A stretch of 64,000 nt of DNA, taken from positions 3,720,001 to 3,784,000 of the forward strand of contig CP126200.1 in the NCBI GenBank assembly GCA_030272155.1, read 5' to 3'. The notes beneath the pieces are model-generated. The model made no database searches, was not told the DNA's origin, and saw only the letters and a list, made by a program, of their open reading frames with translations. Made by a program: the position numbers and the translations under genes. This DNA is from Tetradesmus obliquus (taxonomy: Eukaryota > Chlorophyta > Chlorophyceae > Sphaeropleales > Scenedesmaceae). Positions 15,045 through 56,052 of the stretch are shown here, piece after piece (position 1 is the stretch's first letter; each line of letters opens with the position of its first letter).

Positions 15045-18000
15045 TCACACACGGGCGCCAGGCAGGTCACTGCTGCCATCCCTGCTGCTGCCGTCCCTGT
15101 CAATTGGCAGTGTGTTATCCAGCACACCCGGAGGTGTCTCAACGCCTGTGGTCCAGCTTGCAAATGGCACCTCTTCGGCGTGCTTGTAGTTTGCTGCACG
15201 CAGCGCTGCTTTGGACTCTTCTGTGAGGACCAGTGACTCAGGGTCGGTGAAGGTGAGGCTGAGGCCTGGCACGTTGATCAGGTTGTCGGCAAGCACCTGC
15301 AGCAGCAGTGGAGTCAGCAGCAGCAGCAGCATCAGCAGCAATGAGGGTTGTTGCACTTGGCTATCAGAGGCAAGCATGCTACAGCAGAGCAGGGAGTAGG
15401 TGCAACGCCAGGGGGCCCTGCAGGCACTCCTTCACACCAGCGTCACGCTTCATAGTTATCATTTCAGTTGTTGAAGGACCTCAAAGGAGTACTCTTAATC
15501 GTACACAGACACATTTCTGAGCTTCTCAAGCTACGCACTGTTGTTGTGACCTGTTGGTCTCGGCGTTCCCTGGCTAGGCACACCCTGCCCAGCCTTGACG
15601 TACCCTGGAGCTGCAGAGCAGCCTAGGTAGTCCCCCACTCACTCACTCACTCACTCACTCACTCACTCACTCACTCACTCACTCACTCACTCACTCACTC
15701 ACTCACTCACTCACTCACCGTTGTGGGGTTGCAGGGCAGTCCTGTCTTCTCGCAGGCCGCCAGCCCCAGGCTCATGCTGGGGTAGCTGCGGTGCGGGTTG
15801 ACAAACACGTTGCCCTTGATGACAAAGCCCTGCGTAACCGACAGGGGGTTAGGCATGCTGGGAGGGTAGCTGCTGCCGGTGGTGTTGAGGTTGGAGCTGA
15901 CCTGTTTTTGTGGCAGTGGGGACGGCGGCGGCAGGCATGAGATGAAGTTGATGCGCAGTCAGGTGCACGTGGCAGAGGTATGTTGGAAACATTGCTTATA
16001 AACATTGCGGGAGGAATTGCAAAGGATGCACTAGTCAGCACAAGCAGGCCTGCTATCTTGATGCTGTCGTCCCAACACGGGCACAGAGGAATGGGAACAT
16101 GCGTGATGCATTTGTGTGACCAAGCGCATCACCCACCGAGAAGTGTGACCACATCGAGGACTCATTCTTGGGGTTGACGAGGATGTTGTTGAGGAACTGC
16201 ACGTCCCTTGAGGGAATGCTGATGGCGGGGTTTGTGGCCAGCGCAGGGCCCCATCCACCTGCAGGTATGCATAAAAACACATGAATGGTGTAAAGTCTTG
16301 TCTTCTGTGTCATAGCTTCTGCTTTAATGGTGGTGTTGAAAACTTGGCCAGGGGCAGCTGGAGTGCAAGCAGGCGCACGCTGCACGGCAACCAGGCATCA
16401 AACGGTGGGAGAACAGCTTTACTTATGTGTGCAGTGCACCCAGCTCGCTCGTGCCATGTGAAGGCAGTGAACTACTGCCTGGGGTCTAACCAGCCGATCC
16501 GGCTGCTTGCAGGCAAGCATTGTTTTCAGAGAGGTGGTGATTACATGAGGATCCTGGGGCCAACTACAATGCTGCCTGTCTTTTGCACTCACCCAGATTC
16601 CAGTTGCGTGTGCATACTGCATCTGAGCCGCAGCCTCTGGTACCATAGTTGAACTCAACCGTGTGGGACCTGCTGCCGACCCTGCAGCAAAACAAATGAC
16701 GCTATGCTGAGATGCGACAGGGAAGGCAGGCTCAAGGCAGCAAGGCTGAGATCGCTGTGCTATGTGATCTGGCAAAAGCACAGCAATCTGTCTTTTGCAA
16801 GTATTTCATACAACTCCACGCTGCACACGTGTATGTTGTGCACCTGCTTTGGCTGCTGCTGCATGACTAGGCATGACCAGGCCTGTACACACCCTCAACA
16901 CACACTCACTTGTACAGCGTGTTGTGCGCAATCAGCACAGAGTAGCTGCCAATCGCCCCCAGCCCAGCTCCCCACACGTTATAAATGACGTTATTTGTCA
17001 TTTTCATGCCGTAGGCCTCGTACTCCAGGAAGGGCGGCGTCATGAACTCAAACCCTGTGCCCTGGCCCACCCTGAGGCCCGCCTGCTGGCAGTGGTGCAC
17101 TGCACAACAGTGGCCACACGCAGCAGAGCACAGAGCACGGCAATTGTAGAACAGCAGGTGTGGCAAGCTACCTGGGGCGGCGTGCATTGCAGCGCTGTTT
17201 GCATGATGCTCGAAGAGCGGATAGATGTGCATGATGCTTGAAGAGAAGCTGGCACTTTACAGATGATTCCACGAAGTGCATCGTCCAGAAAGAGCACCAA
17301 TTGTCTCCATAATGCAGTGGTGGCACCAAGGCAGAGTAAGTTGTGGCCGCACCTGTGTTGCTGTCGATGATGAAGTAGGCAGAGCCGCCTGCACGTACGC
17401 ACACAGCAGCAGACGATGTCCTCAGCAACAGCAGAACACACCTGATTCACAGTGCGCACAGCTGTGGCGCTGTGATACACCGCCCCCTGCAGCATGTGCA
17501 GTCACGGCTGCCACTGCTGTCTGCTCCGTGCTGTGCTTGCTGCATGTCTGGCACAACACTCTCCAGATCAGGCTCGATTCACACGTCTACACACAAAAGT
17601 CCTCCTCTAGTCTTGCAACCACACATCGCCATCATTGCAGGTTCTTCCAAGCTGTACAAACGCTCATGCGCTGTGCGGCAAACACCCCCAGCTGCAGGTA
17701 TTTACCTGTGAGGATATATCCTCACCTTTGAGGTACATGCACCAGTCTGCGTGGTGGATGTTTGACCTGCACACGTGGCCGTACTGCACCGCCACTCCAT
17801 CCAGGCCCACACCATTGGGGCAGGAGCCGTAGATATCACTGTCCTCAACATACAGGCCCTTCACCTGGTTGATCTGCACAACAGCACACATACATGTATC
17901 TGGTGCCAGATGTCTTCAGCAATCACACACCGCAGCAGGCATACACCGCTACATCTATATATGCAGTTACAGCCGCACCTTCAGGGCCTGGTTGCTGCCA

Positions 18001-18780
18001 GGGTAGCTGGTACCAGCACATGGTGCCGCATAGCAGCCATACCACATGTGTTCAAGGGGAAGTGCAGTTTGATGCAATGTCACTGCAGTGCCAGCCTCAC
18101 CTTCAGTGCCTGGTTGCTGCCAGGGTAGCTGGTGCCAGTGCCGTAACCCGCAATGGTCACGTTCAGTAGGTACACATAGGAGCTGCAAGGGGGCAGCCAG
18201 CAGGTGAATGAAGCAGGTGACACTCAGGCATTATTCAAAGTGAGATAGGAACGTTCAGCAAGTACACGCTGGAGTTGCATAACATTTACCAGGTGACAGT
18301 CCGGTGATTCTTGGATGCTGCTGTCTCTCACACTTCACCCGCATGTCTCTCACACTTCACCCGCATGTCTCTCACACTTCACCCGCATGTCTCTCACACT
18401 TCACCCGCATGTCTCTCGCACTTCACCCGCATGTCTCTCACACTTCACCCGCATGGCGCTTGAATGGTGCTGGCACTTATGTTGCGAAGTGCTCAAGTCC
18501 TGCGCTCAACGCTTTTAACAGTGTGACAAACACGAACTGCCGCCGCCTTTCTGCACCCACCAGGAAGCCAGGTGCACCACGTTGCCGCCTGCAGTCTCCA
18601 GCCGCTGCTGGAACGTGATGCCCTTGAAGTACATATAGGTGCAGTTGAAGATGTCAACAACCTCAACGATGCTAGGAGGCGCTGACGTATCAGCTGCAGG
18701 GTCCCTTTGGATGATGAGAGGGGCGTCCTCGGTGCCCCAAACCCCATCCATCCACAGCCGGCCACTCAGCGCGACGCCCT

Positions 18781-18871
<91 letters not shown>

Positions 18872-19496
18872 GCAGCAGCAGCAGCAGCAACATCATCAGC
18901 AGCAGCAGCGTCAGCAGTAGGTTCCGTTCGGATTATCAGGGGGGCGTCCTCGGTGCCCCACACCCCATCCATCCACGAACGGCCGCTCAGCGCAGCGCCC
19001 TGCAGCAGCAGCAGCAGCAATTGTGCAAAGCCATTTTGGTGGGTGTTGCCCTCACATCCAGCTAACAGTCGCTTACAGTAGGCAAACCAGCGCACTACCA
19101 AACCCCCGAGGGAGTGGAATCACAGGACAGGGACAATGAGACGGGCAGATTTGTTCAGTTATAAAACAAACTATAAAATATACCCATGCCCTACTCACTG
19201 GCTTGATGTTCATGACAACCCCAGCCTTGAGTAGCCCCTTGCCCAGGCTGAACCACGCAGCAGCAAAGGTCTTGAAGGGGTGGCTGGCGTTGCCCACGGC
19301 AACAGCCCCGGTGTAAGAGGGGTCCACCCAGATGGTCCTGCAGCAGAGCAGCAGCAGCAGCAGCAGCAGAACTGTGTTGTTGACCGGAAATGAAGCATGA
19401 GCTATGTGCATGTTTTGAGCGGCATGCACACAACTCTTGCCCCGAGTACATGGATGCCAATGCACACTGTACAGTGGCACTGCTGCTGGTGCTGCC

Positions 19497-19554
<58 letters not shown>

Positions 19555-19806: not shown

Positions 19807-19861
19807 GCAGCCGCAAGCACTTCACAAAAAAGCCAGCAGCATGCATGATGTGAGCAAAGTT

Positions 19862-22800: not shown

Positions 22801-22945
22801 GAATGACGTTATTTGTCACTTTTATGCCGTAGGCGCTGTACTGCTGCCAGGGGCTGTTCATCTGGAAGGGGTCAGTGGCACCCCCACTGACTAAGGCAGC
22901 TTGGCCGCAGGTGTGTACTGCACACACATAATAGCAATAAACCGA

Positions 22946-22977
<32 letters not shown>

Positions 22978-25372
22978 GCAGGCAGGCAGTGAGGGAGGTG
23001 TCCACGCACCTATCTGGCCAGCAGGCAAGCACTGAGGCCAAACAGAATGCAGCAGGGACCGTAGGATGTGAAGCAGCGTGGCTGGGTGATGCAACAAAGA
23101 GACCGCAGATGGTGCAAGTACTGCACGCACACAGGTGCTACACAGATTGGCACCAGACAGTTGCAGTACAGACAGGTGGACAGGTCCAATCCTGTTGGTC
23201 AAATTTACAAGTGAAGATCTTCAATTTGCCAACTCACCTGTGTTGCCATCAACAATGAAGTATGCTGTTCCGCCTGCAGCAGCAGCAGCAGCAGCAGCAG
23301 AAGTAGCAGATCATCTGGGCGTCAGTAACAGTGCCCACAGCGGCAGACCTGTAGTATTGCAGCTGTAGGTGTCCCAGCGGGGCCACCTGCCTGCTGCATT
23401 ACCTTCGACTACATGCATTTTCAGCGATGTAACATGTGCACTTTGTAAGACTGGCAACACGACGCTTTGCTTGCTTGGCCAGCAGGTGGTTTGCGCACCG
23501 CAATTCTATCGGACATTGACCACCAACACCAGCACCAGAACCAGCAGCAGGGGCAGCAGCAGCAGCAGCAGCACCCCAACAAACAGCAGCACCACCACAA
23601 CCAGCAGCAGTAGCTCACCTGAGAGCCCGAAGCACCAGTCCGTGTGGTGCACCTTGGACCTGGCCACATGCCCGTACTGCACGGCGATGATGTTCAGCGC
23701 AAAGCCGCCCGCAGATGAGCCGTACACCTCACTGTCCTCAATGTAGATGCCCCTGGAGTTGTGCACCTGCGCAGCAGCAGCCATGACACATGCATGATAC
23801 AAGTAAGGTCAACAAGTGCACAGATGAGCCGTACACCTCGCTGTCTTCGATGTAGATGCCCCTGGAGTTGTGCACCTGCGCAGCAGCAGCCATGACACGT
23901 GCATGATACAAGTAACTCGACAAGCACATGCATAGGCCATACACCTTGCTGTCTTCAATGTAGATGCCCCGGGAGTTGTGTACCTGCGCAGCAGCATGCA
24001 TAACAGGTGCAACACACACGCAGTGTGATCAGGCAAGGTATGATGGGGAGTCATGTACCTGCGCAGCAGTATGCATGACAAATGCAACCTACAACATGCA
24101 ACATGACAACACACGCATGACAGGAGGAGAAAGGAATCTGAGGAGAAGACTGATCCAGCTCGCAACATGGCGGCATCGCCGATTTGGTCATGCCTCTTGC
24201 CACCGCTGCTGCCCTCAAGAGCTGTCACAGCTTGCCCACACGACTCTACACACACTAAATAACGACGAATTCAGGCACCCACCGGGTCCTGAGGACTAAG
24301 ACAACTGTGCTGCGCTGCTGCCCACCTTCAGTGCCTGTGCAGTGCCTGGGTAGCCAGTGTTGTAGATGCCGGCCACAGTCACACCCAGCAGGTAGATGGA
24401 GTCACTGCAGGGCGGTAACGGCACAAAACAGACCACACACAGAAGTCAGCACAAAAGCGCACCCACCTCTGAACATAATCCAGGAGGCTTGTGCCCTTTT
24501 GGCAGGACTGCTCAGAATGGCATGCATTGCGGACATATATGCCACTGCAATGCCACTGCTACACGGCCGGCTTTCCTGATAAACCTTATTGATAGATAAG
24601 GCTGCTAGGCTGCTTCTCGGTACCTGTTGGCAATGCGCACTGCATTGGCTGCTGCTGTTGTCTTGGGCTGGAAAGTGACTCCATTGAAGTACACGTAGCT
24701 GCAATTAGTCATAAAGATGACTTCAAGCACTGAGGTTGGTAGTGATGAGTCAGCAGCAGGGTCCCTCTGGATGATGAGGGGTGCCAGGGGTGTGCCTTGA
24801 ACCCCGGACAGCGTCATGGAACCAGCCAGGGCAATGCCCTGCAGCAGCAGCAGCAGCAGCAGCAGAGTTAGTTGTTGGAATGCAGCAGAGTAATTTGGTG
24901 AGCCCAGCAGCAGGTAGAAGCATGGCATGACAGGGACAGGACAAGGACAGCTGAGGGACAGCTAAGGGACAGTATATAGAAACGTTTGACACAGGCTAGG
25001 AACAGGATAGGGGCAGCTTAGGGACGTTTAAAATTACATGAGAAGGATGACATCGGACAGCTTTGGGACAGGATAGGGACGGCTGGGCAACTGGAGTCAA
25101 GATGAGAAAGGGATGTCAGGCTCACAGGTTGTGTAATAGTGCAAGTGACATGTGGGCGTTACATCTTGTAGATGCCAATGACTAGCAGCACACATTATGG
25201 CAGCAGCAGCAGCAGCCAGCCGCACTCACTGGCTTCAGGTTGATGGTGACACCAGCAGTGAGCCACTGGGGAGCCTTGGGCAGGGTAGCCCAAGCAGCAG
25301 CAAAGGTCTTGAAGGGGTGCGTTGCGTTGCCAACTGCAACAGTGCCGGTGTAAGCGGCATCAACCCACAGCG

Positions 25373-25404
<32 letters not shown>

Positions 25405-25777: not shown

Positions 25778-25826
<49 letters not shown>

Positions 25827-25895: not shown

Positions 25896-25927
25896 CCTTC
25901 GGCAGAGTTCACACCAAACGGTATGCA

Positions 25928-25932: not shown

Positions 25933-25943
25933 CTTTTCACACC

Positions 25944-25978
<35 letters not shown>

Positions 25979-26012
25979 TGCAGCACCCTCACACAGCACG
26001 CCCTGCACTCCT

Positions 26013-26247
26013 CTCCCCCGCTGCTGCCGTTGAGCATCGCCCATGTGTCTGTGTTGTATTGCCGTGTTTAGCAGCATCCTACTGCATTGCTGTGTTGCTC
26101 CTCACCTCCGCAGCTGGCGTTCAGCGTCACCCATGTGTCTGTCATATTGCTGCATTTGGCTCTACTGCATCTAGCTGTATTGCTGTAGTGCTGTAGTGCT
26201 TCTCACCTCCACAGCTGCCGTTGAGCACCGTCCATGTGTCTGTGTCA
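26013..26247 (-). repeat. Three tandem copies of the last Sushi exon end (gene 3)
   Basis: The segment encoding TDTW..LN.S and the GGAG|GTGAG donor occurs at 26208-26247 (intact), ~26104-26135 and ~26013-26060 (decaying), with a period near 95 bp. Confidence 0.8.
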
Positions 26248-27937
26248 TCGCAGCGCGCAGTGTAGGCAAACCCAGTGGCGCCGGCCGCACAGGGCGCACT
26301 GCAGAGCGAGCCAATAAGCGAGCCAGCGCAGCTCTGGCTGAAGCCCGCGCTGTAAGGTGCTGCTGTGGCATCTGGCAGACCCGAGCACACTTTGGCTGTG
26401 TTGCAGCAGGAAAAGGTGACAGGCAGGCAGGAAAAGGTGACAGGCAGGCAGGGCAGGCAGGGCAGGCAGGCAGGTGATCGGCAAGGCAGTGTGATGGAGG
26501 CTGTACACATATTGTGAGAAGGGCAGTACATCTGTTGGAGGACTTGCTAGTGGGACAGTGCCAATGCATCCAGGCTCGGGTGCAGCTAACTGATAACTCT
26601 GCAGGTTGCTGTTCAGCAAGCCTAACGCAAAGCAGGCATTTGGCAGGCACCCGGCGGCGGCGTGTGCAGGCGTGTGTGATCATCCCTGCAATGAATGCAA
26701 CAACCAAGTTGCTGTTGGCTCTGCATTGAAGTTGCTGTTCTGCTCCGAAAGCAGCTGGCAAAGCATATCCTGGCTAGCCCACTCACTTGCGCAGCTACCA
26801 GTCAGGATCGTCCACATGTCTGTGTCGTCGCAACGTGCTGTGTAGTCTGTGCCTGTGGCCCTGCTGCCGCATGGGGCAGTGCAGCTTGATCCAACTGCTG
26901 ACTTTGTGCAGCTGGCGCTCCAGCCATTGGTGCTGTTGGGGGCAAGGCTTGCGGCTGGTAGTGAAAAGCAGAACTTGGTGGGCGTGTATGCGGCGTCATA
27001 GTAGGCTCCTGCAGCAACAGGAGACGGCCAGCAGATGCATGAGGCGCCTGTAAATAACATGCGCAGCTTCGGCGTGCATGGAACAGCATTGCTGGGATAC
27101 GTTGAGATTCATCAGATGTCAGTTCGTGCCAGGCGTGGCCTGCATTTGTTTTGGGCTGGCGTGACGTGGTTTCACGCAGAAGGTTGCACGCGCAAACTGC
27201 ACCCGCCAATGTCCTGCACACACACGCAACGCAAACTGCACCCGCCAATGTCCTGCACACACACGCAACGCAAAACCAACAGACTGCTTCTGAAGGACAT
27301 CGTCCAACAGGCGTACTATAGAGAACACAAACAGCACGTACCTGGCAGGTCGTTGCTTGCTACTCTGGCAGTACCGAGCCTATCCACTGGCACAGCATTG
27401 GCCAGCTGCCCCTGGGGTGTGGCCAGTGGCGTGTCCCATGCTGCAAAGGCCGCCTCTGCTGCTGGCTTGTAGGGCACCAGGCCCAGCGCTGCCTTGGAGT
27501 CATCGGTGAGGGTGAGGCTGTCAGGATCAGAGAAGGTGATGGCCAGGCCTGGCACATTGAAGTGGTTTTCTGCTAGCACCTGCACAGCAGCAGCAGCAGC
27601 AGGGCGGTGTTGGGGTTGCGTTGCGGCGCAAAAGCAGTAGTAGATGCGGCAGCCAAGTTGAGTGACTGTGAAATTTGGTAGTAGGACATCTGCTGCACAT
27701 GCTGTAGTGGCAACAACAGTGCATGCAAGGCTACGAAGCTGTCGCGGCCTTCGCCACCGGACAGCGAGATATCATGTGCCAGATAAGCAAGCGACAGCAG
27801 CTGTCGCACGACTCATTGCTGCCATGTGCTGTTGCTGCCAGCATCTGCAGCAGCAGCAGCAGCCAGCACACAACTCACCGTAGGTACGTCACATTGCAGC
27901 CCGGTCTTAGCGCATGCATCCAGGCCCAAGCCCATCA

Positions 27938-27973
<36 letters not shown>

Positions 27974-28330
27974 CCAGAAGCAACAGAACAGCAGCAGCCA
28001 GCATATAACTCACCGTAGGTACGTCACACTGAAGCCCGGTCTTAGCGCATGCATCCAGGCCCAACCCCATCAGCAACAGCAGCAGCAGCACCAGAAACAC
28101 CAGAACAGCAGCAGTCACGAACAACTCACCGTAGGCGTGTTGCATTGCAGCCCGGTCTTCGCGCATGCATCCAGGCCCAACCCCATCGCATACTTTGGGT
28201 CTGGCTTCCAGTTCACAAACAGGTTGCCCTTGATGACCAGGCCCTGGCTGACACTGATGGGGTTAGGCATACTGACAGGGTAGGCTGCGGTCGTGGCAAT
28301 TGGTGAGCTTGTCTGCAACATGGAAATGCA

Positions 28331-28363
<33 letters not shown>

Positions 28364-29752
28364 GCAGCAGTGTGGATGCGTGAGCTAGCCAATTTGGTGA
28401 TTGGTAAAGAGCAGTGCATGTGGACCCTGCAGGCATGCTGTGCAGCTTTGAGTGTAGGGGTCAGACAAACACGTTGCCCTGTTAATGAACAGGCCCTGGC
28501 TGACGCTGATGGGGTTAGGCATGGTGGCCTGATTTTGGCTTGAATGTACACCAATTGCGCATATCTTGCACCAGGGCAGTGCTGCAGTCCTGCAGTGCGC
28601 AAACGCTCACCGAGAAGTGCGAATCTTGCACCAGGGCAACTATTGCAAATCTTGCACCAGGGCAGTGCTGCAAGCAGCAAATCTTTGCAATTCTTGCAAA
28701 TGTTGCACCACGGCAGTGCTGCAAGCAGCACACCAGCTCACCGAGAAGTGTGCCCACATTGCCGAAGCGTTGTTGGGGTTCACGATCAGGTTGTTCACAA
28801 ACATGACGTCCCTGCTGGGCACGGCAAGTGCGGCGCTGGGGGAAACTGGAGGAACCCAGCCGCCTGCAATAGCAGCAGTGTCAGCAGCAGCTTGTGAAGC
28901 TTTGTGACTGACATTGCATGACAGAGCATAGCCGTGTCTCGCCGAACATATAAGGCCTTGATCGCCCATAGCATGCGCATATACATGTGGCGATCTGGCT
29001 AGCAACAAATGCGCCCGCAGCAGAACAGGGCCATGCAAGATTTACACGCTCCCAGCAGCTGGTGGCAGCCTCAATTGAAAGATGCATACACCTTTATTTA
29101 CATAGCTTGTCATTGTTAGCATTGTCACTGACAGTGGCATTGTTGCCATTCCCACTCACCCATCGCATTCACAGCGGTGCAGGTGGCGTTGCCCCAGCCG
29201 CAGCCGCGGCTGCTGGTCTTGATCTCAACTGTGTGAGACCTGCTGCCAACCCTGCAGCAACGAACAGCATCAAACCAGACATCACAGTGTGAGGGGACGT
29301 TCGAGGTAGCACGGCAATGATAGCTGCTGGTCTTTATCTCAACTGTGTGAGAACTGCTGCCAACCCTACACGGCGCACAGACAGTCAGGTGCGGGGCACA
29401 ATGCTTACAACAAGCACGAAGATGATAAAACAGTGCTAGAATCACAGTAAAGCAAGCGACCATGAAGCCGAGAAAGGTACTGCTGTGGCCGTGTTCAGAG
29501 AAAGACAACTGCATTGCCACTTAGCTGTCACTGCTACACAACTTACTTGTGCAGCGTGTTGTGTGCCAGCAGGATGGAGTAACCGCCAAACACGCTCAGC
29601 CCGGCACCCCACACGTCACGAATGACGTTATTTGTCACTTTTATGCCGTAGGCGTCGTACTGCAGCCAGGGGCTGTTCATCTGGCCACCGCCCAGGCCGC
29701 TGACTAGGCCCGCCTGGCCACAGTTGTGCACTGTTGAATATTGCAAATATTT

Positions 29753-29797: not shown

Positions 29798-32616
29798 TGC
29801 TGTTGAGCATTTAGTGTGGCAGACGAGATTTACAGCGCGGACATTGAACAAGTTTCCTGCAAGGTACAGTAGCAGATGTGCAACATGCACACACGCACTG
29901 CCTGTGATGCTGCGTGGGCTCACCTATGTTGCTGTCCACGACGAAATAAGCGGATCCGCCTGCAGCAGCAGCAGCAGCAACAGTAGAAGCTTTAAGTGAT
30001 GCCTGCCAAGCTGTGACGGCACCCAGAGCATCTGTTCTGCCAGCTGCCGCATCAACACAGTACGCCCGCGCTCTTGGGCTTCAACCATCGCTGCTGGCAA
30101 CGTTTAAGCCCACTTTGCTGACACGGGAAATGCGTGACTCAGCACCACCCACATGCTGCACCTTCCAACAGCCGGACCTCAGCCCCCACAACAGCAGCAG
30201 CAGTACCAGCACCCACGCCAGCAGCAGCAACAGCAGCACGAGGTGCACCCACGTCAGCAGCAGCAGCAGCAACAGCAGCACCAGCAGCAGCAGCACCCAC
30301 ATCAGCAGCAGCAGCAGCAGCGCCTCACCGGACAGCCCCAGGCACCACACACATGCTGCCACCTCCAACAGTTGAACCTCAGACGCCACGTTAGCAGCAG
30401 CAGCAGCAGCTGCACCCACGTCAGCAGCAGCAGCAGCAGCAGCAGCGCCTCACCGGACAGCCCCAGGCACCAGTCTGAGTGGTGCACGCGGCTCCTGCAG
30501 ATGTGGCCGTACTGCACAGCAGAGAACTGCAGCGCCCAGCCGCCGGCCGAGGCGCCGCCGATGTCGCTGTCCTCAACGTAGATGCCCCGCGCATTGCTGA
30601 CCTGTGCAAAAAGAGTATGCAGGGCCAAGGAACTTATGATGACGTGTACATGGTGCATGCACAGTTGTCCTTCATGTGGATGCCCCACACGTAGCAGACC
30701 TGCAAATGCACATGGGGCACACGATTGAGTTTGAAGAAAAGGCTGGTTCATGTGGCCGTACTGCACTGCGCTGGCCTGCAGCGCCCAGCCACCGGCAGAG
30801 GCGCGGCCGATGTCACTGTCCTCAACGTAGATGCCTCGGGCGTTGCTGACCTGCAAGAACACCAAAAAGTATGAGCGGCAGGGCAAGTTGATGATTGTCT
30901 GCACACTTGTCCTTGTCTGCACACTTGTCCTCAACGTAGATGCCCCGCACGTTGCTGACCTGCAAGAGCAGCGAGGTGAGAAGAGCATGTGCGGCAGGGC
31001 AAGCTTATGCTTGTGCGTACATGGTGCATGCATAGTTGTCCTCCACGTAGATGCCTCTGGCATTGCTGACCTGCAAATGCACAGTTGGCACAGTTGCGCT
31101 TTGAGAAAGGGTGGTTAGATGTGGGTCCTGGCATCATCTAAGACAGTACGAGCACACCTTGGTGAACGCGTGGCCAAAGACCAGATAGCATTTTGTGTGC
31201 AAATAAGGGCATGCACCGCATGCACAACAAGGAAAGCATGCACTTGTGCGTACTTGGTGCATGCACACAAGTCCTGCGTGCTTTGACCGCACAAGTATCC
31301 TGCCCTTGAGGTGTTCTCATTTGTACTGCTGAAACATGCATTGCTTGCAACCTGCCCTGCATGTCCTTGCGCACACCTTCAACGTCTGTGCAGTGCCGCC
31401 GTAACCAGTGCCGTTTCCAGCACCAGCAATTGTCACATTCAGCAGGTAGATGTAGTCACTGCAGCACGGCAGCAGCACAGCACAAATTGTTATGTAAACC
31501 ACCAGCTGCTGTTACACACTACCACTGAACACCCCTGCATCATGATGTGCTGGTAGTTCTGGCCCTGCTTCTGTTGCTCCTGCCTGCACACGTCTCGTGC
31601 TCGCCCAACATGAGCCAGTCTTTGCGGTAGCAGCCCCCTTTGCTGCTGCTGCTGCTGCTGACTGCACCTGTGTGTTAGCAGTGCCTCCTCTCTCACCTGC
31701 TGCTGATGCGCAATTCATTGCGTGCTGGGCTGCCAGGCCTCACTTGGAAATCAATACCCTGAAAGGAGAGGTAACTGCAGTTGCTGATGTCTTGATGGGC
31801 TGCCCCTGGCTCGCAATGCCACACACTACAGTACCATCATATCAGCGGCCCCACCCCCTCACCTGCTGCTGATGCGCACCACGTTGCCTGCCGGGCTGCC
31901 AGGCCTCGCCTGGAAGTTGATACCTTTGAAGAACAGGTAGCTGCAGTTGCTGATGTCAGCCACATCAATGAAGGAGCCCGCTGAGTCAGCAGCAGCAGCA
32001 GCAGGGTCGCGCTGGATGATTACCGGCGCATCTGCGGTGCCCCATACGCCTGCCAGGCTGAGAGAGATGGGCCAGGCGGACGTCTGGAAGGCGATACCCT
32101 GCAGGCGCAGCAGCAGCAGCAGCAGCAGCAGGTGGCAGTGTGAGGGGTACCTGGGGATGTAGAGTTTGCAATGGTTGAACTTGCTGCGGCAGTCCCTGCA
32201 GAACACAGCAACAGCAGTGAGAGGAACATCATCGACATGTGCTGCGGAACCACAATAACAGTCAGGCATTTCAGTCCCCAACGGACTAAGAAACCCCAAA
32301 CCCTACAGCAACAAAACCCCAGAGCCAGCAGCACAGTTGTCTCACTGGCTTGAGGTCGATGGTGACTCCTGCTGTGAGTTCAGTGACATGCAGGCATTGG
32401 AAATGTACACGCCACTGGCATGCAGCCACACATGCCATGAAAGCAGCAGCAGCAGCCAGCTGCACTCACTGGCTTGAGGTTAATCATGACTCCTGCTGTG
32501 AGCTTGGTAGGTGCCTTAGGCAGGGCTGCCCAGGCAGCAGCCATGGTTTTGAAGGGGTGGCTGGCGTTACCAACAGCCAGAGTGCCGCTGTAAGAGGGGT
32601 CCACCCACAGCGTCCT

Positions 32617-34964: not shown

Positions 34965-39810
<4,846 letters not shown>

Positions 39811-44122: not shown

Positions 44123-47100
44123 TCAGTCGCACTTGACGTTGCGGTAGATCCTGTGCACGAACGCGCTGGCGCCCCAGAACCCTACCGCCCCACACATCAG
44201 CCCCAGGCCCACGCAGAACATGGCGGTGTAGCCAAAGTAGAAGCACGTCTGGAAGAAGCCTGTCATGTGTGTTTTAAACAGGAAGTAGTGCACGCTGTAT
44301 GCAAACACATACAGCGCGGTGCTTCCTGCCATGCCGAAGCTGGTCCACTGCCAGTGGTAGTTCTCCGCATTGAGCAAAAAGTACGTCCCCACGATCGTAA
44401 CGCAGATCGTAACAATCAGCAGGATCAGGAACACCAGCAGCATGAAGCCGTACACGTAGTAGACCTTGTAGTTCCAGAATGACGTAAAGATGAAGTACAT
44501 CTCGATGAAGATGCTGCCAAACGGCAGAAGCCCGCCAGCCATTGCAATCGCAAGCGGCGAAAGGTACCACTGCCGCACCGGGATCGGACTCGGGATGCGC
44601 TTCACCCTGCAGGGGTGGTTTGGCGTGCTGCTCCAGTTGCGCCCGATGATCGTGCCCACTATGCACAGCGGGAAGGACAGGAACGCCCACAGCAGCAGCA
44701 CGATGACGATGTAGCCAAACGGAACAGCGGCCAGGCTGCCGTATGCGATCGCAATCGTGTTGAGCACGAATGCGATGCCGAAAACGACGCCGGGGAAGAG
44801 CATTGCGGTCAGCAGCATCCCCTGGATCCAGGATTTGCCTTCCATGCGGGCATAGAGGCCTCCGCTGACATAGCCTCCCACAAGAGAGGTGAGCGCGTAG
44901 CACACGATGAACACCGTGAGGATGGTGCCGCGCTCCTGCAGGCCGGCAGCAACGAGGCATGTGGAGGCAGATCAAGCACACAGCACGGAACGATCTAGGG
45001 GTTGGTGAGGATACTCCTCATTTTTGAGTGTCAGCGCGTACACGATGAACACGGTGAGGATGGTGCCGCGCTCCTGCACGAGGTAGGTGGTGTGATGCAA
45101 GGCAGGTGCAGGCGGCAGGCAAGCAGCACAGCACGAAATAGTCCAAGGTAGGTGGGCATGTTGCAGTGGCAGCATGATCCGGCTGACGTAGCCTCCCACA
45201 AGAGAGGTCAGCGCGTAGCACACGATGAACACCGTGAGGATGGTGCCGCGCTCGTGAAGGCAGGCAGCAATGAGCATGCGGAGGCAGATCAAGCACACAG
45301 CACGGAACGATCTAGGGTTGGGTGAAGAAATTGTTGAGTGAGAGCGCAAAGCACACGATGAACACCGTGAAGATAGTACCACGCTCCTGCAAGAGGTAGT
45401 TGGTGTGATGTGGGGCAGGTGCAGGCGGCAGGCAAGCAGCACAGCATGGAAGAGTCCAAGGTTAGGTGGGCATGTTGTTGTGGGAAGCATGATCCGAGAT
45501 CCATGTAAAAGAAGACTTGGAGATCCACATGGATGCATGATCCCGAGGTCCGGGTGAATGAATGATCCCGGCATCCGGATGCATGCTTGGTTCTGAGATC
45601 CAGATGGATGCATGATTCCAAGATTTATCAACAGCACAGCAGAGCACCACCACAACCCACACATAAAACGTGCCCATGAAGGTGATCAGGAACACAAACA
45701 GCCCCAGCAGGCACAGCAAAGCACCACCAGGCACAGCAGAGCACCAACCAGCACAACCAGCGCAGCGCAGCCGCTAAATAACACAGAAAAACACCGCAAC
45801 CCACCTCGTAAAACGTGCCCATGATGGTGATGAGGATCACGAACAGGCCCAGCAGGCACAGCTGCCCGCCCGTGCCCACGCAGGCCGCCAGCAGCATGCG
45901 CTGGCTGGGTGCGCGGAACACGTCGCCGTGCACCAGCTTCCAGCCCGTCTCCTCGTTCAGGTCGCGCTCCAGGCTCTCCAGGTCGCCGTCCTCCTTGGCG
46001 TAGCTGCGGCAAGAAACACAGGGGAGCAACGGCATGATTCGAAACAAAGAAATAAGGTGTTCAGCACATCGCACACACATGCATGCTGCAGGCTGTCCAG
46101 GTCGCCATCCTCCTTGGCGTAGCTGCGCAGATGGTTGATAACTATACGCGCATGGAAGTAACAAACAGGGATCACTCTCACACGCAGGATGAAACCAAAA
46201 GTGTGGTGCATAACGGGCACTGTGCGTGAGTTTTCTGGCGCGAGCGTGCTCTAGCTGCCACAGGCTTCAACTGGCAGTAGGCATTTGCGGCTGCTGATAA
46301 TGTGGCGGCTGCTCAAGTGTTGAAAGCGGCCGAGGTACAAAGAGCAGCCGCTCACCGCGCATAGTCCTTGCGCAGCGTGCGCATGAGGATGATGGCCACC
46401 AGCCCCGTGAGGAACATGACCATCATGAAGCTGTTGAAGATGGAGAACCAGTGGATCTGCGGCACGCAGCGCAGCAAGGAAGAGGTGTGGCAGACATTAC
46501 AATGTGTTTTATTGCAGACAAGACCATTCTACTTTACATCCTACCCATCAAGTCTGCAGCCGGCACACGCATAGCAAAGCACAGCGGTGCAAAGCAAGAG
46601 CTTCGTTGCAGTCGCTTGAGGGCGCTTGCGCTTGCTCCAAATTGTGATTGCCTGACACGCGCAGCAACCGCCGCACCTGTCGCACCTTGTGCTTGCATGA
46701 ACTGTAGTCAAGGTAGCAAGCCAACAAACCACGCGCATGCAGGCATCACACACCCAACTGCCGCAACACAGGAAACCTGCCATACAGCGCACCTTGTGCT
46801 CGAAGAAGTTGTGGTCCAGGTAGCGCTTAAAGCGCCCCCCAAACCTCTACATGGCATCACGCGCAGCAACCCACAGAGGCAAAAATGACAACAGCCGCAG
46901 CAGCCGCAACACAGCGCACCTTGTGCTCGAAGAAGTTGTAGTCCAGGTAGCGCTCAAAGCGCTCCCCAAAGGGCGTGCTGGTGGGCAGCCAGTTCACAGC
47001 AAAGGTGAAGGTCACCTGCTGCCCCTCCTTGAGCAGCACGGGCTCGCCCGAGGTGAGGTTCACGTGGATGATCTGCAGCAGCAGCAGCAGCAGCAGGGCG

Positions 47101-49489
47101 CGGCCGAGGATCACAGAGTGTCAGGCTGAGCTGTCTCACAGCTAGAAGCGCACCTGGACCTGCAGGTGTCCACCCAGTTGCAGTCGACTGCTGAGTCATT
47201 GTGTGATGATGCGGCAGCCCTTGCTGCTAAGCCACAGAGCATGTGCTTGCTGCTGCTGCTGTTGCTGCCGCCAGTAGGAAGTAACGTCGTTGTAGCAGCT
47301 GAGTTTCACTTTGCCACCCAACGCCGCGACTCATCGCTGCTGCTGCTGCTGCTGCCTCTGCAGCTGCAGTCACGCCTTCGCGACTGTAGCTCATCTTCAA
47401 CACACCTAATACCACTGTTGTACCTGTGCAAGCTTTGCTTCTGCTGTTGCTGCTGCTGTGCAAAGCCTCCATCGCTGCTGCTGCTGCTGTGGCCACACAG
47501 CAGGGATGCACTGCCATCTCCCTCACCCTGTCCGCGTTGTAGTTGATGCCCAGCTGCGTGTGGCTGCTGCGATAGACAACTCCACAACGCAGCACACAGT
47601 ACAGCTTTGCGCAGCCACTCCACTCAACCCTGTCCCAAATTGTAGTTAATATCCAGCTGCTGCTGCTGCTGCTGCTGCCATGACCAACATCCACGGTGTA
47701 CACACTGTACAGGCAATGCGCTGCAACCCGCCTCACCCTGTCCCTGTCGCTGCTTATGTCCAGCTGCTTGTGGCTGCTGCCGTTTCTTTCTCACCCATCT
47801 CCCCACACAGCAGAGGCGCACCTCAGAACACGCTACCACATGCTCACCCTATCTTCGTTAAAGCTGCTGCTGCTGCTGTGGTTACACCGTCCTAGTTTAA
47901 ACCCCCTCAATGCTGCACCCGCCTCACCCTGTCCCCGTTGTAGCTGATATCCAGCTGCTTGTGGCTGTACAGCAGCAGGTCCGGCTCGGCCCCCGGGGCA
48001 CCCTTGAGCTCTCCCACAAAGCCCCACACGGGCAGCTCATCCATGAACAGCTCGTACCAGTAGTGGTGCTGCACCGCGTACCTGCAGGCAGCAGCACAAT
48101 AGTGCAGTGCATACAATATAAGCAGTTGTTGTTGGCAGCTGGTACCAGTAGTGGTGCTGCACCGAGTACCTGCAGGCAGCATGGGTGATAGTGCAGTGCT
48201 GAAGGGTGCTGAGGAGTGTTTGTGCACACAATTGCATGACCTGCATCGAGAGATGCAACAGTTTGAAGCATTATGGTCACGTGACGATTCAAGGCAATCT
48301 CCAGCGCAGCTCTGGGGGCAGCTGCTGCTGTTTGGCGCTGTTGGCTCACTGGGCAGCATTGACTGTCTTCAGCTGCTGTTGCTTGCAAAAGCTGGGTGAG
48401 CTGAGCTCGTCCACAAGAGTACAACACTGCCGCCCATGCCAGCTGGGCTGCCAGCAGAAGCTAGCACGCTTGCTGCTCGTTAGCCTGCTGTTGCGGCAGC
48501 TGGGCACACAGCTTCTTGCAGTGACCGCTGCCAGTGCTGCTGCTCCTGCTCCTGCTGTTGCTGCTGCCGGTGCTGCCGCTGTTGCTGCTGCCGCTGTTGT
48601 TGCTGCTGCTGTCACCTGAACTCCTCGACATCATCCTGGCTCAACTTCTGGGAGCAGATGGGAGACTTGAGCACGGGCACTGCGGTTCAAGAATAATATG
48701 AGCAGCAGGAGAGCCATGTCAGCAGGTCCGAGAACGCTGTTCTACCACGCACAACCAGTCAGGTGCTGAATCATCACACGCGGTTGTTTTGCTGTGCCGA
48801 GTGGCTGGCACAAGGGCAGCATCCAACTGGGCAGTGGTGCTGCTGATGGCACAGCTGCAGACATGCTTGGTGCGCATGCAGTAATCCACATCCGCTGACA
48901 TTAACCGTGCCTGCAACAAGTACAACTGCTGCATGCATACTGGTGCAGCTGCACCCTCCGTGCCAGTTGGAACACAGGTGCATCTGCTGCTGTTTTGTGT
49001 GCTTAAACAGGGCACCCACCCTTGAACTTGATGTCAAGCTGGCTGTTGATGAGTTCATTGCCTTGCAGGACCTCGCCTAGGCCACCCCAGCTATGCTCAT
49101 CTTTCTGCTGCGGGTGCCGCTTGCAGTATGGCAGGGCGTAGTAGTTGTACGTTTCCTGCAGATCATGCACCGGCAGCAGTATGGTGTGGTGCTGAACAGG
49201 TGATGAGCCCTGGGGCGACTGCTAAAGACTGGCAAAAGGCTCCTGCTGGCAGAAGTGGTTGGCAACAGGATGCCTGGCAAGACAACTGCAGTACTGCTCA
49301 CTGCATGGATCAGCACAGTCTAGCACAAACCTGCGGGTTGTTGTAAGGTCCGACTTTGTTTACCCAAAGCGTTACTGCCTCGCCATCTTTGTATCTGTGG
49401 TTGTTCTCGCCAGCAAGAGTACAAACTGCCAGGCAGCCGAGCAGCAGCAATGCTGCCAGGCCCCAACGGCCCTTTCCCAGCAGCTCCAT
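44123..49489 (-). CDS. TM9SF: Transmembrane 9 superfamily (nonaspanin/EMP70) protein, 592 aa
   Basis: Nonaspanins are Golgi/endosomal nine-pass membrane proteins involved in sorting and adhesion. Eight exons: 49331-49489, 49020-49155, 48616-48679, 47928-48081, 46920-47072, 46356-46456, 45805-46003 and 44123-44935 (1779 nt, all phases fit). A signal peptide ([18 protein letters not shown]) precedes the luminal domain, with family hallmarks [37 protein letters not shown] and [12 protein letters not shown]1 is in exon 6 ([20 protein letters not shown]), followed by [13 protein letters not shown] and eight more TM segments. The C-terminus VKCD carries the family's K-x-D COPI/Golgi-retention signal. 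Length is typical. The gene starts only ~160 bp from a LINE fragment, which may have displaced its promoter. Introns contain many partial exon copies. Confidence 0.93.
45030..45394 (-). repeat. Three partial copies of the TM9SF last-exon start
   Basis: Copies of [16 protein letters not shown] with the upstream acceptor region at 45030-45080, 45183-45256 (longest, to GGYVS) and 45340-45394; the real exon starts at 44935. Confidence 0.93.
45658..45722 (-). repeat. Partial copy of TM9SF exon 7 end
   Basis: Encodes [17 protein letters not shown], a copy of [18 protein letters not shown] at the end of exon 45805-46003, about 145 bp downstream. Confidence 0.9.
46788..46848 (-). repeat. Partial copy of TM9SF exon 5 end
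   Basis: Copy of [11 protein letters not shown] plus donor (reads [11 protein letters not shown]), ~128 bp downstream of the real exon end at 46920. Confidence 0.9.
47527..47876 (-). repeat. Four partial copies of TM9SF exon 4 end
   Basis: Copies of the [10 protein letters not shown] segment and donor at 47844-47876, 47731-47774, 47640-47665 and 47527-47567; the real end is at 47928. Spacing is ~85-110 bp. Confidence 0.88.
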
Positions 49490-52063: not shown

Positions 52064-52070
52064 TGGGTAA

Positions 52071-52084
52071 CATGATGATGATGC

Positions 52085-52119
<35 letters not shown>

Positions 52120-52120
52120 C

Positions 52121-52177
<57 letters not shown>

Positions 52178-52792: not shown

Positions 52793-55700
52793 TCAAGGCT
52801 GGATGCCTTGCAGCGCTGGCACTTGCTGCGCGTACTCCTGCGAAGCCCCGTTCTGCAGCACAACCTGTGGCTGTTACAAACAGCCCTGCAGGAAGCCTGT
52901 GCAAGTGCAGCCAGGTGCGTCCCTGAACACCCACTGCTGCCTCAGGCTGAACACCCAAGCCATGTATAAACATCATATGTGCAACCAAAAAATAATAAAG
53001 TAAACATCATACCAAGCACTCACTAGCTCAGTGCGCTCAGTCTCCAGTATATGTGCGCTCCATTTGCGGCTGTATCCCATTGATACCAGTGCCAGCACCA
53101 GCACGATTGTGGTCAGCAGCTGCGACAGCAAGCTGTGGTCAAACTTGATCCAGGCCGCAACCGACAGGTTGGCAAACAGGCAGGGGATTCCTGCAAGCAA
53201 CACACCACAGCACTTTGAAGGTTTCAGTCTTGAAGACATGAAGATGTGCGCAGGCCAAGCAAATGAGCTGGACTGAGGCAGCGCTGACGCGTTGCAGGCA
53301 GGGTTGCCAGCTTCTACTCCTGCAAGTATGGGCCATTGCCCATAGTTTGCTGCACGGGCACGCGCCTGTCTTCATGGTCTGTGGCACTCCACCCACTTAG
53401 ACCGGATAGCACGGAAGGCTTTGCCCACAGGACCAGCTTCCACCCCTGCTAGCACAAGCATCAGCGATACACACACTGGCCTGCTTGCTGAACAAGCACG
53501 CGCGTTGCTCTAAGGCATACACACATGTGGACACTTGTTCTGCTGTACAAGCACCCACCCACCTAGCCCGAACAGCAGGAAGGCTCTGCGCCAGCTCTGC
53601 TCGCAGCGCTGCGCCCAGTGCATGGCAAAGGAGCGCGCGGGAGCGGGCGGCCGGTCGCCCCAGCTGCAGGCACGGCAGCGGGGGGCAGCAGCAGGACGCG
53701 CGGTTATTGAAGGGTACACATACACTACAGTCACCAGCCGCAGCTCCAGCCAGTGGCGCGCGCCTGGCGACGTTCAACCCTCACCTTTTTGTAGGCTGTG
53801 AGCCCATGCAGCTGCCAACTGCAGAACACGCCGCTCGCTGTACAAGTTCGGTTGAAAAGGCGCCTGCTGCTGCTACAAACTGTACCCCCTTATGGCCGCA
53901 TGTAGTATCAAATGCAGGGCATGCAGCTCACCCGTAGATGTTGGGAGAAGGAGGTTAAGAACTGACGACCCTCTCACCTGTAGCTGTCCACAAAGGCCTT
54001 GCAGCGGCTCCTGAACTCCGCCTCCTTTTAATAGCGCATGGCCACTGTGTATGGTATGACTGACAATCGCCGCAGCGCAACCATCTCACCTGTAGCTGTC
54101 CACAAAGGCCTTGCAACAGGTCATGAACTCCGCCTCCTTACAAAAGCGCATGGCCACTGTGTATGGTATGACTGACAATCGCCGCAGCGCAACCATCTCA
54201 CTTGTAGCTGTCCACAAAGGCCTTGCAGCGGCTCCTGACACCCGCCTCCTCACAGTTGCGCATTGCCAGTGTGTATGTTCAGATTGGCATTCCTGGCCCC
54301 TACCGGCTACCAGCAACTAGTAGTCGAAGCAGTGCAGCTTTGTCACCTGTAGCTGTCCACGAAGGCCTTGCAGCGGGTCATACATTCCGCCTCCTTAAGG
54401 CTGCAGAGGCTGCGTTGGCTGATGCTCACTGTTAACTTGTCATACTTGTCTGTCTGCAAAAGCCTCACCCGTAGCTGTCCACGGAGGCCTTGCAGCAGGT
54501 CATGAACTCCGCCTCCTGAAGGCTGCAGAGGCTGTGTTGGCTGATGCTCACTGATAACCTTTTCAATTGTCTTTTCAAACAGCCTCACCCATAGCTGTCC
54601 ACGAAGGCCTTGCAGCGGTTCATGAACTCCGCCTCCTCCTCCTCCGACATGTAGTTCTGGCCCGTCTTGAACACACTGACCAGCATCAGCGAGCAGATGA
54701 TCACGCAGATGGTCTCAAGGCCCACCTGGCCGCAGCAGCAGCAGCAGCGCCGGCGGCAGCAGCAGCGGCAGCAGCAGCAGCAGCGGCGGCAGCAGCAGCA
54801 GCGGCAGCAGCAGCAGCAGCGGCAGCAGCAGCAGCAGCAGCAGCCAGCTGATGATCGGCAGACGCTCTCAAGCCCACCTAAGCAGCAGAATGGACATCAT
54901 GCACCATACCGGCCAGGAGCGCTCAGTGTCTCAAAGCAGATTCGATGTCATGCAGCGCAGTGCAGCTAGCGGCACCTGGCAATGCAATGACGCGGGGCAT
55001 ACTTGTTTCCTGCAAGTTTGCGCGCTCCACACCGAATGTCCTGCAAGCATGCAATTGCTGGTGTTGAGGCTGCCTGTTGCTAATCCTTCTCCGCGCTATG
55101 CGCTTAAATTGTCAGCAGCACTGCTCGAGCGCAGGACATAACTGCTGCTGCTGCTGTTCTCTGTTGCACAGCTCCACCACCCTACTCAACCACCTCACCG
55201 TGAGGGCCATGGTGACTCCAAACAGTGGCAGCACTGCGCCAGACGTATCGACATAGTTGCCGAAGTCAAACTGCAGGAATGCAGACAGCGCAAAGCCACT
55301 GATGAGGGCAGCCAGCGTTGAAATGGCCTTCAGTTGCTCACTCTTCTCTTCCACATCTCGTCGGTTCTTCTCAACTACACGCGCCCACAGGGCACGGGCG
55401 TTTTCTAGGTGCCGCTGCTCTATGTCTTCCTGCCGCCACTGGCGCTGCTCCTCGCTGCAGCAGCAGCAGCAGGGATGCGGCAGAGGTCACAGCAGCAGCG
55501 CAGTTGCAGTTGCAGGTGCAGCGCGGAGTGGCGGGCAAGTCATGCGCTGCTGCTGGGAAGCTGTGCTGATGAATGCTGCTTGCCAGGCAGGTGCATGTGC
55601 TGCTGATGTTGCAGTGAATAAATCATCCAAAGGTATTCATCAGCATGCTAAAGTTGATATTTCTGGTGATAGGCAGCTGTCCTGCAGCAGAGCGGCAGGC

Positions 55701-56052
55701 CGCTGCACTGTTGCGGCTGTAGCCATGCTGCTGACAGCATATGCATGTGCTGATCCGAAGTGCTGCCTGCCCATGTTCTCTGCTGCTGCTAATGGACAGA
55801 CACTGATTGCTCTGAGCAACTCCTTGTGCAGCTGGTGTGCGCAGCATGCAGGGAATGACACGTTGAGCCAGGCTAAGCCTGCTGTGGTACTCACAGGAAG
55901 CTGTGCTGTGCTTCGCTAAAGTACAGTTCCTTCTGCCTCCAGCACATGTCTTCTGTGCGCCATTTCCTGTCCTCTTCCCGCCATTGCCGGCTGAGTGCTG
56001 TGTCGTAGCCTGTCAGCAGCGCTTGCGCTGCTTCCACTAGCCGTTCGTCCAT
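52793..56052 (-). CDS. ORAI: ORAI/CRAC-channel-like membrane protein (292 aa)
   Basis: ORAI proteins form hexameric plasma-membrane Ca2+ channels. Six exons: 55895-56052, 55199-55454, 54589-54725, 53563-53663, 53024-53190 and 52793-52852 (879 nt, phases 2,0,2,1,0). An unusual N-terminal helix rich in Trp/Arg/Glu (SRQWREEDRKWRTEDMCW) leads into TM1 KAISTLAALISGFALSAFLQ. TM2 is VTMALTVGLETICVIICSLM; after a cytosolic loop comes TM3 FLLFGLGGIPCLFANLSVAA and TM4 LLTTIVLVLALVSMGY, then a C-terminal helix SRKWSAHILETERTEL. Length and topology match human ORAI1 (301 aa). In TM1, aligned on SGFA, the selectivity-filter Glu (human E106) is Gln, with Asp two residues later. Family is fairly sure; channel activity is open. 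Confidence 0.8.
53978..54520 (-). repeat. Five tandem partial copies of ORAI exon 3 end
   Basis: Copies of EAEFM.RCKAFVDSY plus donor at about 54467-54520, 54344-54400, 54197-54250, 54089-54143 and 53978-54030; the real end is at 54589. Spacing is ~108-147 bp. With the original this makes six units, the largest set in the window. Confidence 0.93.
54735..54843. repeat. CAG/CGG triplet run upstream of ORAI exon 3
   Basis: About 36 interrupted triplets, (CTG/CCG)n on the minus strand, ending next to the acceptor at 54726. Confidence 0.9.

What the first reader, a model, noticed from the sequence alone, without database searches (positions are those of the whole stretch)
15045..56052. Tandem duplications of exon-intron junctions in every minus-strand multi-exon gene
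At least 16 junctions in five genes have partial copies spanning a splice site: exon starts with acceptor, or exon ends with donor. Copies of exon starts always lie upstream of the true exon, copies of exon ends always downstream, spaced mostly ~85-230 bp, one to five extra copies each. A tandem duplication across a junction gives exactly this layout, because splicing keeps the outermost intact site and leaves the copy in the intron. This implies a continuing, mostly neutral mechanism of intron growth, and a supply of alternative splice sites. HAUS5 and the RS gene show none obvious, so the process may be regional.
Basis: partly seen in the sequence, partly recalled or inferred. Interest (0 to 1): 0.9.

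Follow-up and report, generated by a model that had tools for sequence, protein, structure and literature searches.

The report
Repeated exon ends hidden inside introns
In this alga-like genome many introns carry one to five extra, imperfect copies of the end of the neighbouring exon together with its splice site, often about 120 bases apart, which points to an uncommon way for introns to grow and would give cells a large stock of spare splice sites.

Summary
Extra copies of exon ends with their splice site occur in six minus-strand gene models of the window and on five other chromosomes, plus-strand genes included: 56 of 404 junctions in the first sample (null 0.24%; wrong side 8 of 404) and 13 of 62 in a 50-kb hold-out (null 0 of 496). 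They are tandem units of exon end plus intron: on average the spacer matches the flanking intron in the predicted register and not in the opposite one. Spacing has median 122 bp in the first sample but is broader in the hold-out. Of 43 tandem families alignable over at least 80% of their period, 34 span a junction, 3 are intron-only, 1 intergenic, 5 mixed.

"Mostly neutral" is only partly right: older copies show about half or less of the changes at codon positions 1 and 2 that neutrality predicts, even after modelling detection. Donor-type copies show no second splice site, so cassette exons are unlikely. Best account: short tandem duplications at splice junctions whose copies spent part of their history as working exon ends, most simply through out-of-register exchange between diverged alleles. 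That last step is inferred; no RNA or second haplotype was available.

The parts
17962..18182 (-). beta-helix gene A: exon 18101-18182 and donor; extra exon end at 17962-18016 (spacing 122)
18561..19019 (-). gene A: exon 18561-18778; extra exon start 18911-19019 upstream (spacing 221) with a degenerate intermediate copy about 130 nt away
23619..24088 (-). gene B: exon 23619-23766 with three extra exon starts upstream (about 109, 108 and 75 nt apart)
26008..26359 (-). cysteine-rich exon 26207-26359 with extra exon ends downstream within 26008-26142 (spacings about 101 and 191; the outer one has lost the GT)
27854..28312 (-). gene C: exon 28130-28312 with two extra exon ends downstream (spacings 116, 251)
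29160..29370 (-). gene C: exon 29160-29251, extra exon start 29323-29370 (spacing 114)
30330..31076 (-). gene C: exon 30454-30601 with three extra exon starts (spacings 249, 358, 469) and one weak candidate extra exon end at 30330-30365 (125)
31692..32098 (-). gene C: exon 31863-32098, extra exon end 31692-31791 (spacing 166)
32326..32614 (-). gene C: exon 32470-32614, extra exon end 32326-32378 (spacing 124)
35780..36731 (-). unnamed gene: repeated exon start (VLPFIDDSLLSRLA) in an array with at least five alignable copies
36938..37192 (-). unnamed gene: exon 37086-37192, extra exon end 36938-36968 (spacing 145)
44123..45391 (-). EMP70/TM9SF gene: exon 44123-44935 with three extra exon starts upstream (spacings 138, 318, 451)
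45640..46127 (-). EMP70/TM9SF gene: exon 45805-46003 with an extra exon end 45640-45717 (145) and an extra exon start 46085-46127 (119)
46784..47072 (-). EMP70/TM9SF gene: exon 46920-47072, extra exon end 46784-46843 (127)
47506..48199 (-). EMP70/TM9SF gene: exon 47928-48081 with two extra exon ends (191, 401) and one extra exon start 48136-48199 (88)
53968..54725 (-). Orai gene: exon 54589-54725 followed by five extra exon ends of about 47 nt, each with a GT donor (spacings 120, 242, 387, 499, 611)

Best explanation
Short tandem duplications, often near 120 bp, occur or survive preferentially where the unit straddles a splice junction (about 30-60 nt of exon end, the splice site, and the adjoining intron). 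Splicing keeps the copy attached to the exon body; the others stay in the intron and lengthen it, and arrays reach as many as five extra copies. Shown here: geometry, register, junction preference, occurrence on six chromosomes, and a coding-type pattern of change in the copies. Inferred: the copies were working exon ends for part of their life, most simply because arrays are reshuffled between diverged alleles by out-of-register recombination, so an exon end that worked in one allele becomes a spare in another.
For: Frequency 56 of 404 junctions, null 0.24% of 4580 draws; hold-out 13 of 62, null 0 of 496. Register test for the intron part. Junction preference 34 vs 3 intron-only against a random share of 0.41 (120-bp placements, P 8e-11) or 0.69 (240-bp placements, P 0.001). 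Codon pattern in 46 DNA-selected copies: differences at positions 1/2/3 of 56/783, 41/785, 154/781; 125 synonymous and 91 other changed codons, 1 of them a stop; conservative replacements (BLOSUM mean 0.07 vs -0.52, n=68, P 0.0008). Neutral simulation at the matched rate gives a synonymous/other ratio of 0.65, maximum 1.06 in 60 runs, vs 1.37 seen. The gap survives a simulated detection filter: 0.60-0.66 expected vs 42/33 and 61/58 in the two older classes. Hold-out: positions 1/2/3 differ 11/11/37, 29 synonymous vs 15 other. No second splice site at the far edge of donor-type copies (median best score 2.4 vs control 2.25). Published Scenedesmus context consistent with diverged haplotypes: DOE0152z assembly 208 Mb vs about 109 Mb for UTEX393 (PMC5552973, whole text), strain 46B-D3 'likely diploid' (PMC7955037, passages).
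Against: No second haplotype, population or RNA data were available, so exchange between alleles is not shown. The species is inferred only from size, GC and published figures. The approximately 120-bp spacing was clear in the first sample (59 of 96 spacings in 105-135) but weak in the hold-out (3 of 13; 6 of 15 full-unit C5 families by period). Copies with little intron divergence fit plain neutrality at codon positions 1 and 2 (17 of 70 families). The codon-pattern set of 46 was chosen for an unalignable spacer; the peptide-based sets are chosen on amino-acid similarity. Gene models come from my own HMM, which called some copies exons, and this inflates the junction class; among the 15 families with identity 85% or more, 10 junction vs 2 intron-only is not significant against the 240-bp share (my hand calculation, about 0.23).
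Confidence: 0.45

Rival explanations
1. Plain neutral tandem duplication across junctions: copies are identical at birth, then decay freely in the intron; junction preference comes only from what selection tolerates and what is detectable.
For: Register homology; young families change at about the neutral amount at codon positions 1 and 2 (0.028 and 0.091 vs 0.033 and 0.079 expected); copies carry some stops (3 in 96 copies), gaps and lost GT/AG.
Against: Third-position excess and conservative changes; older classes show 0.061 and 0.085 at positions 1/2 where 0.16 and 0.24 is expected, and the detection-filter simulation still predicts about 0.135 and 0.17-0.19; intron-only and intergenic units too rare.
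Confidence: 0.25
2. The copies are functional now: alternative or regulatory exon ends kept by selection.
For: GT kept 25 of 28 and AG 16 of 17 in the DNA-selected set; donor strength close to true sites (median 9.1 vs 9.65 bits); outer copies no more decayed than the nearest; coding-type pattern of change.
Against: No second splice site at donor-type copies; acceptor strength of copies is well below true sites (median 4.4 vs 10.2); the coding pattern is similar for all spacings modulo 3, and read-through meets a stop in 26 of 28 donor cases; GT/AG lost in 13 of 96 copies, which I judge to be about what ordinary decay would give; the EMP70 protein without copies matches Pfam in one continuous stretch.
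Confidence: 0.15
3. Assembly artefact: two diverged haplotypes stitched together, leaving both exon ends.
For: Coding-like divergence between copies and diverged intron parts are what two haplotypes would give; related strains look diploid (PMC5552973, PMC7955037).
Against: 23 of 60 junctions have two to five extra copies, including arrays of five or six different sequences, which two haplotypes cannot supply; some copies carry stops and single-base gaps; regular tandem arrays at about 98% identity.
Confidence: 0.07
4. Templated insertion: the exon end is copied with unrelated filler, not as part of a tandem unit.
For: In many pairs only exon end and splice site align; the outermost unit of two young arrays lacks the spacer.
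Against: Spacer and flanking intron are homologous in register on average, with scores of 50 or more against nulls of 19-38 in 10 of 13 hold-out cases (in widely spaced pairs the window may include a further copy), and above the 99% null in 26 of 70 overall.
Confidence: 0.08

Closest known systems
Potato RdRp tandem genomic duplication across an intron-exon boundary (Ma, Lan, Niu 2016, PMC4974935; abstract and passages read)
   Same: A tandem duplication crosses an intron-exon boundary and carries the splice signals with it.
   Different: One locus, and there it created a new intron and exon; here it is a class found at many junctions, the intron lengthens, and the extra exon part is left inside the intron.
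Intron gain by AGGT tandem duplication (Rogers 1989; Hellsten 2011; as cited in PMC4974935) and internal gene duplication (Gao and Lynch 2009; as cited there)
   Same: Internal tandem duplication as the source of new intron sequence.
   Different: There an exonic AGGT supplies both splice sites of a new intron; here one existing junction is repeated and I see no new intron made.
Introners (PMC9860276, search listing only)
   Same: Large numbers of similar events in introns of one genome.
   Different: Introners are described as elements that copy themselves into many genes; here each copy derives from the adjacent exon. No cross-locus family of spacers was identified, but the spacer search was swamped by CAG repeats and its output was cut.
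Minisatellites (recalled)
   Same: Arrays with tens-to-hundreds bp units that expand and contract.
   Different: Units lie mostly at splice junctions and carry a coding-type pattern of change.

Membership tests
Tandem duplication | direct orientation, adjacent units, whole unit including intron part homologous | tested here: met
   register test (on average over 23 pairs); 26 of 70 families above the 99% null; 43 full-unit families
Tandem-duplication intron gain (Rogers model) | duplicated exonic AGGT gives both splice sites of a new intron | tested here: not met
   the unit spans an existing junction; no distal acceptor at donor-type copies
Introners | related element sequence shared among many introns | tested here: inconclusive
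   spacers against 264 kb; output dominated by CAG repeats and cut; no shared family noticed in what was shown
Cassette or mutually exclusive exons | a splice site at both ends of each copy | tested here: not met
   28 donor-type and 17 acceptor-type copies: donor-type median equals control; acceptor-type 0.6 vs control -2.2, still weak; 7 of 28 and 1 of 17 single copies score 6 or more
Cassette or mutually exclusive exons | transcripts containing the copies | not testable with these tools
   no RNA data
Neutral tandem duplicates | no codon-position bias beyond that from the true exon | tested here: not met
   near-neutral at positions 1 and 2 for the youngest 17 of 70 families

The most novel reading that the evidence does not exclude
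A junction-directed duplication process: recombination or repair fails preferentially where homology between diverged alleles drops at exon-intron junctions, producing units often near 120 bp, so that a noticeable share of all splice junctions carries a stock of interchangeable exon ends that are swapped in and out of service over evolutionary time.
Probability: 0.25. Interest if true: 0.88.

Novelty: new variant of a known kind. Interest (0 to 1): 0.7.

Why it matters
About one junction in seven in the first sample (56 of 404) and one in five in the hold-out (13 of 62) carries an extra exon end, and introns that carry them are about 160 bp longer at the median. T. obliquus, which this genome resembles in size and GC, is reported with a longer mean intron than the four other green algae in the same table (462 bp vs 230-302; PMC5966456, passages). 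This gives intron growth a direct, datable cause, supplies many natural tests of how the spliceosome chooses between two near-identical sites, and, if copies are exchanged between alleles, offers a record of such exchange at splice-site resolution.

Tried and rejected
1. Cassette exons: unlikely, no second splice site at donor-type copies. 2. Exon extension by read-through: 26 of 28 donor cases meet a stop, and the coding pattern is similar for all spacings modulo 3. 3. Pure templated insertion with filler: I held this for a while; the register test and the hold-out turned it down. 4. My earlier reading that spacers are unalignable came from choosing pairs with a gap of at least 25 nt; corrected. 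5. A strict ~120-bp ruler: strong in the first sample, weak in the hold-out, so not claimed as a constant. 6. Residual 120-nt autocorrelation in introns after masking known hits: none seen. 7. Recent paralogues with an empty site: DNA searches of the genome with two window segments gave 34 matches, all at one CAG run, and 49 matches, all in a non-LTR-like element except two at a CAG run. Only 39 candidates were scored in each, so absence of paralogues is not shown. 8. Codon test between copies: third-position excess seen (39/50/84), but that set is chosen on peptide similarity, so I give it little weight. 9. Spacer sequences compared across loci: output swamped by CAG repeats and cut. 10. Correlation of copy length and gap (-0.51 for d<170): truncation on the sum makes this unsafe; not used.

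Full report
Setting. The window is G000:C10:3720001-3784000 of a 104,662,953-base genome in 17 contigs, GC 55.8%. T. obliquus UTEX393 is given as 108 Mb, GC 57%, mean intron 462 bp (PMC5966456, passages), so a Scenedesmaceae alga is likely; this was not tested by sequence. Related strains look diploid: DOE0152z assembles to 208 Mb vs about 109 Mb for UTEX393 (PMC5552973, whole text), and 46B-D3 is called likely diploid (PMC7955037, passages).

Gene models. No annotation was available, so I wrote a two-strand HMM gene finder and trained it on the window plus four 50-kb blocks of C1-C4: 366 exons, 319 introns, median intron 277 bp, donor AG|GTGAG, acceptor GCAG|G. Proteins joined from its exons with the extra copies left out match Pfam EMP70 (E 2.2e-153), Orai-1 (1.2e-33) and, just above its cut-off, Beta_helix (5e-6). 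The three beta-helix genes (A about 15.0-19.3 kb, B about 20.9-25.3 kb, C about 27.3-32.6 kb) are paralogues by their shared exon peptides; only A was run against Pfam.

Observation. Window self-BLAST: 58 direct pairs within 3 kb. After a low-complexity filter and a 1.5-kb limit: 53, 34, 10, 13 and 15 pairs in the window and C1-C4; one search lists all 125 against predicted exons. In 40-nt windows at 80% identity and within 600 nt, junction windows have a copy in 2310 of 22183, exon windows 2097 of 41279, gene-edge windows 348 of 3668, intron-only 3003 of 85167, intergenic 1370 of 98489; cross-chromosome nulls give 0 after filtering in 3 x 50,000 positions. The donor profile peaks 10-20 nt inside the exon (11-12%), is about 2% at 10-60 nt inside the intron, and rises again at 80-130 nt, where the copies lie; the acceptor profile is its mirror image with a lower second rise. 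A peptide scan finds a copy at 56 of 404 junctions (score at least 30, null 0.24% of 4580 draws), 8 of 404 on the wrong side. A wider scan gives 62 junctions, 60 after removing two whose exon is itself a copy, with 96 copies: 37 have one, 14 two, 6 three, 2 four, 1 five; spacing median 122, 59 of 96 in 105-135, 7 below 105, 15 in 136-200, 15 above 200. In 14 of 19 pairs spaced 190 or more, an intermediate copy is detected (p below 0.05 against other loci).

Hold-out. With the model fixed, 50 kb of C5 gave 13 of 62 junctions with a copy, 1 of 62 on the wrong side, null 0 of 496; differences at codon positions 1/2/3 were 11/11/37, 29 synonymous vs 15 other codons, no stop; GT or AG kept in 12 of 13. 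Spacing was broader, 106-264, with 3 of 13 in 105-135, which speaks against a strict length rule.

Tandem nature. In 23 single-step pairs the spacer aligns with the intron flank predicted by tandem duplication better than with other loci (excess 5.72 +- 1.36, 0 of 5000 permutations); the opposite pairing gives -0.34 (P 0.69). In 70 families not chosen on spacer alignability, 26 exceed the 99% null and 36 the 95% null. In the hold-out 10 of 13 flanks score 50 or more against nulls of 19-38, 3 do not; in widely spaced pairs the compared stretch may include a further copy.

Junction preference. I took tandem families whose aligned length is at least 80% of the period, period 60-300, in all six blocks: 43 families, of which 34 span a junction of a predicted exon of 60 nt or more, 3 are intron-only, 1 intergenic, 5 mixed. 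Random 120-bp placements give a junction share of 0.41 among junction plus intron-only (P 8e-11); 240-bp placements give 0.69 (P 0.001). Caveats: some predicted exons are themselves copies, which inflates the junction class, and conserved exon parts help alignment. Among the 15 families with best identity 85% or more the split is 10 junction, 2 intron-only, 1 intergenic, 2 mixed, not significant against the 240-bp share by my hand calculation.

Are the copies neutral? Of the 125 filtered pairs, 47 met gap at least 25 nt, spacing at most 330, identity at least 80% and a junction in an exon of at least 60 nt; 43 of these 47 have the expected type and side. Counted once per copy this is 46. Differences at positions 1/2/3: 56/783, 41/785, 154/781; changed codons 125 synonymous, 91 other, 1 of these a stop. 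Replacements are conservative. Simulating an identical duplicate that decays freely while the true exon keeps its protein gives third-position differences of about 72 and a ratio of 0.65 (maximum 1.06 in 60 runs at the matched rate) vs 154 and 1.37. Because the peptide-based families are chosen on similarity, I simulated that choice too: expected synonymous/other 0.60-0.66 at all ages, observed 25/21 in the two younger and 42/33 and 61/58 in the two older classes. By estimated intron-flank divergence, positions 1/2 differ by 0.028 (n=6) and 0.091 (n=11) in young families, close to the neutral 0.033 and 0.079, but 0.061 (n=24) and 0.085 (n=29) in old ones, where 0.163 and 0.236 are expected and the filtered simulation gives about 0.135 and 0.17-0.19. 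So young copies look roughly neutral at those positions; older visible copies kept their protein meaning longer than neutrality allows.

Are they used now? In the DNA-selected set copies keep GT in 25 of 28 and AG in 16 of 17; donor strength is close to true sites (9.1 vs 9.65), acceptor strength is lower (4.4 vs 10.2). In the peptide set GT or AG is kept in 83 of 96. No second splice site marks the far edge of donor-type copies (2.4 vs control 2.25), and it is weak in acceptor-type copies (0.6 vs -2.2). Reading through from the exon meets a stop in 26 of 28 donor cases, and the coding pattern is similar for all spacings modulo 3. I judge the loss of 13 of 96 dinucleotides to fit ordinary decay, and therefore favour past over present service as exon ends.

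Interpretation. A copy can have been an exon end only where it was joined to the exon body. In one lineage a copy that left that place decays from then on. For it to carry a coding-type divergence it should have diverged while in service on another chromosome, then been joined out of register. Exchange between diverged alleles does this and also accounts for diverged intron parts and intact splice sites. This is an inference; the data needed, a second haplotype, were not available.

Literature. The closest printed case is the potato RdRp duplication across an intron-exon boundary (PMC4974935, abstract and passages). I saw no description of a genome-wide class of junction-spanning tandem copies in the listings, of which I opened only the papers named here; the library lacks most subscription papers. 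PMC7590803 (S. obliquus AS-6-11) has no mention of introns, tandem or duplication in its main text by term search.

Noticed in passing
window 49884-52177: A stretch with 49 listed matches in the genome, most at 90-97% identity, with variable 5' ends and mostly a common 3' end near 52083, overlapping an (ATG)n run at 52072-52177: looks like a 5'-truncated non-LTR retrotransposon family, recently active (naming recalled). Two of the 49 are at a CAG run instead.
   Followed up: partly
window 40940-41411 and 43041-43512: Two identical 472-bp direct repeats 2.1 kb apart, like the ends of a very young LTR-type or similar element.
   Followed up: no
window 11094-11344 and 13053-13303: 251-bp direct repeats 2 kb apart at 86% identity, possibly an older element of the same kind.
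   Followed up: no
window 15045-32614: Three tandem paralogues of a right-handed beta-helix protein; genes B and C both carry extra copies at the homologous junction (VHNSRGIY / VSNARGIY), each resembling its own gene.
   Followed up: partly
window, many places; e.g. 18781-18917, 37198-37296: Very abundant CAG/CTG trinucleotide runs.
   Followed up: no
window 18322-18455: A 22-bp minisatellite, six units at 98%, wholly inside a predicted intron: one of only three intron-only full-unit families found.
   Followed up: no
window 26202-26304 and 26782-26884; also 19901-19936 and exon 20477-20698: Cysteine-rich exons repeated about 580 bp apart (72% identity for the first pair; the second seen only as a peptide match), probably real domain repeats in the protein rather than spare exon ends.
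   Followed up: no
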